NCBI GenBank assembly: GCA_015179025.1
Contig: WHUX01000002.1
Span: forward strand, 372,001 to 436,000
Length of the DNA: 64,000 bases
Direction: 5' to 3'
Source of the DNA: Terfezia claveryi
Taxonomy: Eukaryota > Ascomycota > Pezizomycetes > Pezizales > Pezizaceae
Part shown: one piece after another, positions 37,579-40,034 of the stretch
How the letters are laid out: each line of letters starts with the position of its first letter
Numbering within the stretch: the stretch's first letter is position 1
Program-made: the position numbers and the translations under genes
Notes under the pieces: model-generated
Seen by the model: only the letters and a program-made list of their open reading frames with translations
The model's database searches: none
What the model was told of the DNA's origin: nothing

Positions 37579-37961
37579 CTCTGGCTGCGTCTTGCCAAGG
37601 ATTGCCTGAGCGCCGCACCTTATCCCAAACCAGCCCACACTCAAGGTGGCAACCAGACTAGTGGCGACCCCACATGACACATATAAGTAGGTACATATAC
37701 CTACTAGGGGTTGCCACTTCTTAATTCAAGAAAAAAAATAGTGTGTGAATTATGCCTTGGCAACGCCACTGCCAGCGCTGATTGGCTGCCTTCGCAATTG
37801 CAATTCATAATTCCTCCAGAATTCGTAATGCTACTCTCGAGTGGCATGACGAGGTAGGAATTATGAATTCTGAATTATCCTAGCTTACAAAGCACAACAA
37901 CCGTAGGTGATCGCATCAACTACACAACCAACGAAGCCGACAAAACCTACGAATCCTAGAA

Positions 37962-38159
37962 ATGGCCGAGCGACAACGAATGTGGCAAAAAGAAGAGCTA
38001 GAGGCACTTGTGGGGTGGATGGAAGAGAATAAAGAGAGCTTAAGAGGGAAACAAGCAGTATCGATGTCTAGATATCCACTCATATCGATTCCAAAGATCT
38101 TGAAGGAGTTTAGGAAGTATAGGATTGACTTGTGTAAAGCCATAGATAAGTTGTTCTAG
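37962..38159 (+). CDS. Small Myb/SANT-like frame inside the TIR element
   Basis: A 65-codon frame (MAERQRMWQKEELEALVGWM...) carries the W-x-x-E-E-L-x-A-L-V-x-W-M-E-E-N-K-E-x-L-R-G-K pattern. I associate this with Myb/SANT-like or related helical DNA-binding segments of fungal transposon-linked proteins. Only about the first half of such a domain remains before a stop. It could be a remnant or a small expressed DNA-binding peptide. Confidence 0.4.
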   Translation: MAERQRMWQKEELEALVGWMEENKESLRGKQAVSMSRYPLISIPKILKEFRKYRIDLCKAIDKLF

Positions 38160-38286
38160 ATTAATCAGCTGAAGTAGTTGTCGCATAAGTCTCATAAGGT
38201 GTGTAAGCTCCCACTCTCTTTTGCTTAACCGTGGCATACTGCAATGAAGTTGTATTTGTTAGATTTTGCAATTCTAATAGTATTAT

Positions 38287-38306
38287 GGGGTTGCCACTTC
38301 TTAATT
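38287..38306 (+). repeat. Internal copy of the element's terminal repeat
   Basis: GGGGTTGCCACTTCTTAATT, identical to the first 20 bases of the element's left end and in the same orientation. It suggests a nested or rearranged second copy. Confidence 0.85.
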
Positions 38307-38639
38307 GCATCCTAGCTACATTCGGCATGATGTTGGCGTCGCCAAGGCCACTATTTATACACTATTTTTTTTCTTGAATTAAGAAGTGGCAACCCCTACT
38401 ACTGTACTCATGAAGCAACGCATGTACCGTCGATCACTCTTCGTGTTTATATATATCTGCTGACTCCGGAAGGGTCTCAAGCAGAACACGCTAATAATTT
38501 TACTATCTTATAAAGGAAAAGCAGCAGCATAGATATCTAGCTGTTTTAGAATGCAGAAAAGGGGCTCGTCATGACGAGGCATACCATATCACCGCTATAC
38601 AATATCACCGCTATACAATATCACCGTCAACAAATCAAA

Positions 38640-38903
38640 ATGTCTACTGAAGCCATGATGCCAATCTCTGCTGATGCTCTCCACTACCGCACTATATTGT
38701 TCGAGCTCAGCAAACCAGTTACAATACCCCCCCAAATATTTGACGAGATATGGCCATATGTGGATTCGGTTTATTCAAAGCTTCAGCAAGAGCTGCTGCA
38801 AGCTTATGGTACAGTACGTGTTCAGAAATATGAGTGCAGACTTCGAAAAAGCAGGAAGTCAAGCGTAGCTCAAGTTGCGGATACCGATGGTAAGGTTTAT
38901 TAA
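38640..38903 (+). CDS. MULE-element frame A, N-terminal part of a zinc-finger-like protein
   Basis: An 87-aa frame whose ATG is the last part of the left inverted repeat, so the arm also supplies its promoter and leader. It reads MSTEAMMPISADALHYRTIL and ends near KYECRLRKSRKSS, providing a first cysteine. It overlaps frame B by 17 nt. See frame B for the domain argument. Expression is not shown. Confidence 0.45.
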   Translation: MSTEAMMPISADALHYRTILFELSKPVTIPPQIFDEIWPYVDSVYSKLQQELLQAYGTVRVQKYECRLRKSRKSSVAQVADTDGKVY

Positions 38904-39204
38904 ACGCCGGCAAAGCAGTATTCGAAATGCCAACCTTTGCAATGTCCGAATAAAGGTCTTGCATCTAGTGGATGGCACAGCTGTTACCATTGAGCGCTTA
39001 GATGAACATACCCATACTCATGATATTGAGGAGAGCTTCCAGATAAAAAAACCAAGTATATTAGTAGGATATATCAAGTCTGAAGCAGCCAAAAATTACT
39101 CTGCTTCTCAGATTTACCATGTTATCCATAGTGCTGGTGGTACACATGAAGGCGCTGAGCGGCTGAAAGAGCTTGGTGGCTCATCTTTGAAAACGTTTGT
39201 ATGA
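38887..39204 (+). CDS. MULE-element frame B, WRKY/FLYWCH-like DNA-binding segment
   Basis: A 105-aa frame, +1 relative to frame A. It contains NLCNVRIKVLHL...LDEHTHTHD followed by KPSILVGYIKSEAAKNYSAS, which resembles the N-terminal C-x-C-x-H-x-H DNA-binding region and the following helical linker of Mutator-like transposases. Together with the Cys of frame A the four ligand candidates (C, C, H, H) are present. The catalytic DDE core that should follow is absent. I found no intron joining the frames, so a frameshift (mutation or programmed) separates them. The MULE relationship is inference from pattern. Confidence 0.5.
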   Translation: MVRFIKRRQSSIRNANLCNVRIKVLHLVDGTAVTIERLDEHTHTHDIEESFQIKKPSILVGYIKSEAAKNYSASQIYHVIHSAGGTHEGAERLKELGGSSLKTFV

Positions 39205-39438
39205 CTCTTCATTAATGAGGTATAATATAGCTAATGAATTCGTTATATAGAAAAGATATGACATTTTGATTTGTTGACGGTGATATTGTATAGCGGTGAT
39301 ATTGTATAGCGGTGATATGGTATGCCTCGTCATGACGAGCCCCTTTTCTGCATTCTAAAACAGCTAGATATCTATGCTGCTGCTTTTCCTTTATAAGATA
39401 GTAAAATTATTAGCGTGTTCTGCTTGAGACCCTTCCCT

Positions 39439-39556
39439 GACTCCTTGTCTGTATCTGAATCATAACTCTAGTATAAGTCAAAATTCGAGTCAAGAACGCT
39501 AAACTAGTAACGCCCCTACCACAAAAAGGAAAGAGCAAAGATACAGACAAGGAGTC
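39439..39556. repeat. 118-bp inverted-repeat (MITE-like) hairpin
   Basis: GACTCCTTGTCTGTATCT at 39439-39456 is the exact reverse complement of 39539-39556, an 18-bp perfect arm around an 82-bp spacer. The right target duplication of the Mutator-like element overlaps the left arm, so that element inserted at the edge of this older hairpin. Confidence 0.8.
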
Positions 39557-40034
39557 TTATTCACCAATTTTCCCGGTACTTGACTTTCAAGCAATTCGGT
39601 CAAGCAATTCATATGCTTGAATACATACATATCACTCTTGATCTTTGTTCATTGTGAAGTCTTCTTAACTGAACCTATTTGATTCACGCTGCCAGATAGA
39701 CCAACCTAGTCTGGTCACAAGCCCCTCGTCGAGAGAGTCCAACTTTCAATAGTTTGAACCCAGAAACTGCTAAGCCCGACTGACAGGCTACCTAACTGAG
39801 AATGGTTAACTGTATCAGATGCAATGTCAGGGTAACGGAAACTTAAAGTGCAACTAGATTGAGTCTACTATTTCGCTTAAAGCCTAGAGACACTTATTGG
39901 GACAAATAGAAAGCACGCACACCATTAACTCAAGCCCCAACTGACCACAATGCCTCAATCACGATGATATATCCTCCCAATGTCTCTCAGACGCAAACAA
40001 ATCCAGATTCCCTACACTTTTCAGCCTCTAACTT
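39557..40034. other. Intergenic, 3' flank of the methionyl-tRNA synthetase gene
   Basis: No gene. A dispersed-repeat copy (AGTCTGGTCACAAGCCCCTC) lies near 39706, and TCAGGGTAA at 39827-39835. Confidence 0.5.

What the first reader, a model, noticed from the sequence alone, without database searches (positions are those of the whole stretch)
38460..39444. Young Mutator-like element that carries only a DNA-binding module
Seen: 177-bp arms identical base for base, a perfect 8-bp duplication, and inside only about 105-190 codons resembling the DNA-binding end of a MULE transposase, with no DDE core. The start codon lies inside the arm. A TIR-bounded unit that encodes just the arm-binding domain could act as a mobile trans-repressor or competitor of the full transposase, as P-element and Ac-type repressors do, rather than a passive MITE. 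Arm identity shows it moved recently, so an autonomous partner should exist in the genome.
Basis: partly seen in the sequence, partly recalled or inferred. Interest (0 to 1): 0.78.

Follow-up and report, generated by a model that had tools for sequence, protein, structure and literature searches.

The report
Two-left-ended truffle jumping gene
A desert truffle carries a young, short jumping element that kept the DNA-binding start of a larger jumping gene and replaced that gene's right end with a mirror copy of its left end; most copies have lost the protein, so it looks more like a stowaway of the larger gene than a guardian against it.

Summary
Window 38468-39436 is a 969-bp element with 177-bp identical arms and a perfect 8-bp duplication. 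The host genome matches the desert truffle Terfezia claveryi. The predicted partner exists: 2.6-kb Mutator-like elements (MULEs) with the same ends, 8-bp duplications and a DDE-type transposase. The short element is the left 792 bp of such a MULE closed by an inverted copy of its own first 177 bp, so both ends are transposase-side ("double-left") ends. All copies found share one junction: one founding event, then at least nine insertions. The founder could encode a two-exon, DNA-binding-only protein (weak WRKY-like fold match), its stop supplied by the inverted arm. The repressor reading is weak: 1 of 9 insertions keeps the frame; the window copy has an extra base; six carry a frame-shifting 32-bp deletion, and that form kept moving; substitutions fit neutrality (3 of 10 silent). 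Best reading: a recently mobile, trans-mobilised MULE derivative, new mainly in its double-left architecture. That resembles maize Mu killer, so RNA silencing by a mobile element is the boldest reading not excluded. Transcription, small RNAs and binding are untested.

The parts
38460..38467 (.). 8-bp target-site duplication, left copy (CTGACTCC)
38468..39436 (+). whole short element, 969 bp, drawn in the direction of the transposase exon
38468..38644 (+). left arm, 177 bp: the original MULE left end
38565..38578 (.). 14-bp perfect palindrome CTCGTCATGACGAG closing the ~111-bp core terminal repeat; found with up to 2 mismatches in 41 of the 47 loci then held, diverged subfamilies included (a binding-site role is inference)
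38580..38627 (+). three 16-bp subterminal repeats (TATACAATATCACCGC type), left-end specific in the 2.6-kb relatives
38640..39194 (+). exon 1 of the MULE transposase gene (N-terminal module); ATG 38640-38642 lies in the arm; frame broken in this copy by an extra T at 38896
39195..39250 (+). 56-nt intron 1 (GTTTGT...TATATAG), kept whole; supported by annotated gene models of three short copies, not by transcripts
39251..39269 (+). start of exon 2 (39251-39259) running across the junction into the inverted arm, where TGA 39267-39269 ends the frame (...KT-KDMTF stop)
39259..39260 (.). founder junction: left-derived DNA meets the inverted copy of the left 177 bp; no mismatch in any of the 12 genome matches although 3 were allowed
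39260..39436 (-). right arm: inverted copy of the left end (with its 16-bp repeats and ATG), not the MULE's own right end
39277..39324 (-). the three 16-bp repeats again, in the right arm
39326..39339 (.). palindrome CTCGTCATGACGAG, right arm
39437..39444 (.). 8-bp target-site duplication, right copy

Best explanation
It is a young non-autonomous MULE of Terfezia claveryi. An aberrant repair or template-switch event (inferred) joined the left 792 bp of a 2.6-kb MULE to an inverted copy of that MULE's first 177 bp, giving a unit with two transposase-side ends (shown). Transposase made in trans by 2.6-kb relatives then moved it at least nine times (the insertions are shown, the trans supply is inferred). 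Its exon is mostly passive cargo (inferred from frame loss). Two identical left ends, each with the palindrome and the 16-bp repeats, may make it a good substrate (inferred, untested).
For: Arms and duplication. Collinear with the 2.6-kb copies at C22, C567 and C51, which have 8-bp duplications. Those three have ends matching over only 130-137 bp at 94-97%, with 16-bp repeats at the left end alone. One junction in 12 of 12 pattern matches. Six of 8 flank-distinct complete copies have perfect 8-bp duplications; a seventh, nested in another copy, has its duplication in inverted form inside a compound whose outer duplication is intact. Short copies separate from the rest with 0.973 support, and L010 is 97.9% identical to L018 over exon 1 plus intron. 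DDE/ZSWIM-type transposase in the partner. Passive cargo: 1 of 9 insertions in frame; 3 of 10 changes silent against 0.25-0.28 expected.
Against: The best full-length match to L010 is only 97.9%, so the exact donor is not shown, and no copy of this subfamily with a wholly intact transposase was identified: C567 is frame-shifted in exon 1, C51 has stops, and C22 ends its last exon 55 codons before C567 does. More diverged copies (C260, C368; 79% and 75% identical over the last exon) have open last exons and could be the source. One locus (C223, with a second contig C527 of the same flanks) has no target duplication. Copy counts by similarity are lower bounds.
Confidence: 0.85

Rival explanations
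1. Protein repressor: short copies express a DNA-binding-only product that occupies the ends or promoter of the full MULE, as KP does for the P element.
For: The founder frame was self-contained: start in the left arm, intact intron, stop in the right arm. One copy (C268, P0002, 186 aa) is still open. The module has conserved C66, C100, H125 and H127 and a WRKY-like predicted fold. KP-type repressors are described as interrupted transposase with the DNA-binding domain kept (PMC12393704 passages). The 32-bp deletion form still has a frame through the zinc ligands from another ATG (38674).
Against: 8 of 9 insertions have lost the main frame by three separate lesions (T insertion, C>T stop, 32-bp deletion); the deletion form moved most; no sign of selection on the exon (only 10 changes, so weak power). 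Expression and binding not tested.
Confidence: 0.1
2. RNA silencer: with transposase-side (presumed promoter-side) ends at both sides facing inward, each copy may be transcribed from both ends, giving sense and antisense exon 1 and hairpins of the arms that direct silencing of the full MULE, as Mu killer does in maize.
For: Both arms derive from the transposase-adjacent end, as stated for Mu killer (PMC3440606 passages). The folded strand pairs the arms fully, -497 kcal/mol, z -35 against 20 shuffles. It needs no open frame, so frame loss does not count against it. MULE long repeats are reported to hold promoters (PMC3310237 passages).
Against: No RNA data. Mu killer's inverted duplication is about 1.3 kb of gene; here it is 177 bp, nearly all untranslated. 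Any long-armed element folds this way. The decay of full-length copies is explained by C-to-T mutation. A promoter in these arms is not shown.
Confidence: 0.12
3. The short form spread because it is under the length at which this fungus recognises repeats for C-to-T mutation (RIP-like), while 2.6-kb copies are destroyed. This can hold together with the best explanation.
For: Against L018, several full-length copies differ mostly by C>T/G>A, chiefly at CpA and CpG (L023 78 of 98, L020 53 of 58, L022 142 of 168, L024 47 of 56); three short copies tested do not (9 of 16, 10 of 19, 10 of 19).
Against: Short copies are also the youngest, so age alone may explain it; one 2.6-kb copy (L019) shows only a mild bias (25 of 42). 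L018 was the reference and changes were not polarised. No length threshold was tested in this species.
Confidence: 0.2

Closest known systems
Mutator-like elements (MULEs) and their internally deleted non-autonomous derivatives
   Same: Long terminal repeats, target duplication, MULE/ZSWIM-type transposase in the full-length partner, derivative presumably moved in trans
   Different: Right end replaced by an inverted copy of the left end; 8-bp duplication, where the plant study seen required 9-11 bp
Mu killer of maize (internally deleted, partly duplicated MuDR)
   Same: Both terminal repeats come from the transposase-adjacent end and face each other (PMC3440606 passages)
   Different: Mu killer is one locus with ~1.3 kb of inverted gene duplication and shown silencing; this is a mobile family with 177-bp arms and no function shown
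KP-type P-element repressors of Drosophila
   Same: Catalytic core gone, DNA-binding domain left, spreads as a derivative (PMC12393704 passages)
   Different: Frame kept in only 1 of 9 insertions; different superfamily; repression untested
Galileo elements of Drosophila with extended terminal repeats
   Same: Internal sequence recruited into terminal repeats; template switching in repair given as a cause of defective copies (PMC4168063 passages)
   Different: P superfamily; there the recruited piece is the end of the transposase frame, here it is the upstream and start-codon side
Tm1 Mutator/Foldback family of root-knot nematodes
   Same: MULE with a FLYWCH-type N-terminus and MITE-like relatives (PMC3169594 passages)
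   Different: Composite repeats of varying length, 9-bp duplications, no double-left structure in the passages seen

Membership tests
MULE superfamily (non-autonomous member) | long terminal inverted repeats | tested here: met
   177 bp at 100%
MULE superfamily (non-autonomous member) | target-site duplication of about 8-11 bp | tested here: met
   8 bp at 6 of 8 flank-distinct complete short copies, the window's included, and at three 2.6-kb relatives. Shorter than the 9-11 bp used in the plant study; that 8 bp is accepted for MULEs is recalled
MULE superfamily (non-autonomous member) | relative with the same ends encoding a MULE-type DDE transposase | tested here: met
   C22 and C567 copies. 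Pfam MULE E 3.1e-4, ZSWIM1-3 RNaseH-like E 1.2e-5, ZSWIM1-3 helical E 5.5e-4; all below the curated cut-offs
KP-type repressor | transposase interrupted | tested here: met
   no core in the unit
KP-type repressor | DNA-binding domain encoded intact | tested here: not met
   broken in the window copy; open in 1 of 9 insertions, C268
KP-type repressor | product expressed and represses the full element | not testable with these tools
   no transcript or assay data
Mu killer-like silencer | both terminal repeats from the transposase-adjacent end | tested here: met
Mu killer-like silencer | large inverted duplication of the transposase gene (~1.3 kb) | tested here: not met
   inverted part is 177 bp, of which 5 bp are coding from ATG 38640
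Mu killer-like silencer | small RNAs and silencing in trans | not testable with these tools
   no RNA data held
WRKY-GCM1 / FLYWCH-type zinc finger (the module) | C-C-H-x-H metal ligands | tested here: met
   C66, C100, H125 at 90% or more, H127 invariant in 48 aligned relatives, chosen by me from 109 hits; that these bind zinc is inference
WRKY-GCM1 / FLYWCH-type zinc finger (the module) | fold | tested here: inconclusive
WRKY-GCM1 / FLYWCH-type zinc finger (the module) | sequence profile match | tested here: not met
   no Pfam family for either window frame or for the open product P0002; among 48 relatives one weak FAR1 match, E 0.26

The most novel reading that the evidence does not exclude
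A mobile, self-spreading version of Mu killer: a MULE derivative that carries two promoter-side ends facing each other, so that every new insertion is a fresh source of double-stranded RNA against its own autonomous parent, with no need for an intact protein.
Probability: 0.12. Interest if true: 0.78.

Novelty: new variant of a known kind. Interest (0 to 1): 0.42.

Why it matters
Deletion derivatives of transposons are common, but a young family in which both ends come from the transposase side gives a clean natural test of two questions: whether end symmetry makes a derivative a better substrate, and whether such a derivative silences its parent by RNA. It also warns that gene models such as BGX38DRAFT_1325934 (the window copy) are transposon fragments and not truffle genes.

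Tried and rejected
Plain internal deletion with the original right end: rejected, because the right ends of the three closest 2.6-kb copies part from their left ends after 130-137 bp and lack the 16-bp repeats, while the short right arm matches the left arm to 177 bp.

Chance inverted repeat or assembly fold-back: rejected, since ten complete copies exist with differing flanks and most have duplications. Two pairs of contigs share flanks (C527/C223 100% over 2194 bp; C46/C437 99.7% over 3083 bp) and were counted once each; that they are second alleles is inference.

Profile test of the module with Pfam: no match for the window frames, none for the open product P0002. A sequence search of solved structures with the 48-row alignment gave one chance-level hit. 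FLYWCH and GCM1 chains were not among the structure rows shown; that does not exclude them.

A 32-nt or 11-nt intron after the codons KTF was considered from the frames and dropped for the 56-nt intron used by the annotated models; homologues reading ...LKRQDIVNLKRG agree.

Allelic empty site for the window copy: the right-flank search (40 of 125 candidates scored) and the left-flank search (7 of 7) gave, beside the window itself, only partial matches to other repeats. Other ~1-kb relatives at C24 and C135 have interiors without a match to the 2.6-kb MULE and ~111-bp arms, so they are not double-left copies of this exon. The fusion signature (...KDMTF) was seen in 3 of 109 protein hits, all T. 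claveryi; the DNA of other species was not searched.

Literature searches listed no paper on such an element in Terfezia. They cover open-licence papers only, most rows were seen as listings, and one search listed 10 of 748 papers, so this does not show absence from print. Passages were seen of PMC4168063, PMC3440606, PMC3169594, PMC12393704, PMC4352252 and PMC3310237; no paper was read whole.

Full report
What was checked. The unit at 38468-39436 has 177-bp arms that are perfect inverted complements and is bounded by CTGACTCC on both sides, 38460-38467 and 39437-39444.

Which organism. The annotated protein P0002 (Terfezia claveryi, BGX38DRAFT_1269591) lies on a contig of 414,519 bases, the length of contig C268 of the host genome; P0011 (774,299) and P0004 (1,049,214) match C784 and C112 in the same way. 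The window lies on C112, so the host is taken to be Terfezia claveryi, a desert truffle. P0004 (BGX38DRAFT_1325934), which carries the window copy's own extra codon (...VIHSAGG...), is the annotated model of the window copy.

Copies. A search with the arm gave 45 matches, with 40 of 114 candidates scored; a search with the interior gave 45 matches, 40 of 65 candidates scored. A pattern across the internal junction gave 12 matches, none with a mismatch although three were allowed, and 0 in the reversed control. They fall in ten complete short copies of 933-969 bp and in one further copy that is split in two and present on two contigs (C46, C437). Two contig pairs share flanks, so there are 8 flank-distinct complete copies and, with the split copy, 9 insertion events. 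Six of the 8 have a perfect 8-bp duplication. The seventh sits in a compound at C46:164538-166411: one copy landed in another, and the stretch from its left end to the host copy's right end was then inverted (inferred from the order of the pieces). The inner duplication CAGATTTA is present in inverted form and the outer one, ATCATATC, is intact. The eighth (C223/C527) has none.

The parent. Copies of 2604-2638 bp at C22, C567 and C51 have the same ends and 8-bp duplications. Exons of the C22 copy match ZSWIM1-3 RNaseH-like (E 1.2e-5), ZSWIM1-3 helical (5.5e-4) and MULE (3.1e-4), all under the curated cut-offs but adjacent and consistent. The last-exon region has 57 matches genome-wide. No copy of this subfamily with a wholly intact transposase was identified: C567 is frame-shifted in exon 1, C51 has stops, and C22 has an open exon 1, exon 2 and a last exon that ends 55 codons before that of C567. 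More diverged copies at C260 and C368 have open last exons of 361 and 365 codons.

How the short form is built. Bases 1-792 of the short element are collinear with the left part of the MULE; the remaining 177 are the inverted first 177 bases. In C22, C567 and C51 left and right ends match over 130-137 bp at 94-97%, then part; the 16-bp repeats are at the left end only (8, 5 and 5 units with up to two mismatches). In the short form both ends have three. The core repeat ends in a 14-bp palindrome, CTCGTCATGACGAG, found with up to two mismatches in 41 of 47 loci, among them both ends of the elements at C24 and C135 whose interiors are unrelated. The junction shows no clear shared bases between the two joined sequences (by eye).

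Is the frame kept. Only the C268 copy is open from ATG to stop, with a 9-bp in-frame loss. The window copy has a T insertion at 38896; the annotated model avoids it with an intron that removes C100 (P0004). The copy at C46:286970 has a C>T stop. Six insertions, the split copy included, carry a 32-bp deletion that shifts the frame. An alternative ATG (38674) would still give these a frame through the zinc ligands, so a rare product is not excluded. Ten substitutions among the complete copies are 6 missense, 1 nonsense and 3 silent; chance expects 25-28% silent. The sample is small.

Lineage. Copies at C792, C679 and C223/C527 share H160N and one change in the right arm. A mutated, frame-shifted copy therefore went on moving. 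This is the main evidence that mobility comes in trans.

Other forces. Several full-length copies show strong C-to-T bias at CpA and CpG relative to L018; the three short copies tested do not (L018 was the reference, direction not polarised). This looks like a RIP-type process. Short copies are younger, so length and age cannot be told apart here.

Recurrent core loss. Among the 109 protein hits are several that join the N-terminal module directly to the C-terminal tail at different points, in Tirmania nivea, T. claveryi and metagenomes (for example P0037, P0046, P0047, P0060, P0079, P0100, P0105). The query was the module, so this is a biased sample.

Verdict. The element is real, young and a MULE derivative with an existing larger partner. 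The protein-repressor reading is not supported as a selected function. The double-left structure is the interesting part, and its closest parallel is Mu killer, described as having both terminal repeats from the mudrA-adjacent end (PMC3440606 passages).

Noticed in passing
window 37702-38401: Another non-autonomous element, about 700 bp with 49-bp arms at 94% (TACTAGGGGTTGCC...), 97% identical relatives at C479 and C168 (L056, L057), with a short frame (37962-38159) whose only Pfam match is at chance level.
   Followed up: partly
window 39439-39579: A ~141-bp MITE with 18-bp inverted ends, in many copies (40 of 125 candidates scored); the short MULE's target duplication overlaps its left edge, so one element sits in the end of another.
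   Followed up: partly
L011 639-2512 (C46:164538-166411) and L016: Nested insertion followed by an inversion between arms of two short copies; inner duplication is inverted, outer one intact.
   Followed up: yes
L050 1487-1612 (C68): Two left ends in direct tandem (70-bp spacing), like the tandem-repeat MULEs described in plants (PMC3310237).
   Followed up: no
L023, L020, L022, L024 and other 2.6-kb relatives: Strong C>T/G>A bias at CpA and CpG, a RIP-like mark in a Pezizomycete.
   Followed up: partly
L026 (C390) and L029 (C445): A separate 1.48-kb derivative that lost the catalytic core and joins the N-terminal part to the C-terminal tail; two loci with 8-bp duplications.
   Followed up: partly
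L048 (C24) and L049 (C135): About 1.03-kb elements with ~111-bp MULE arms and unrelated interiors.
   Followed up: partly
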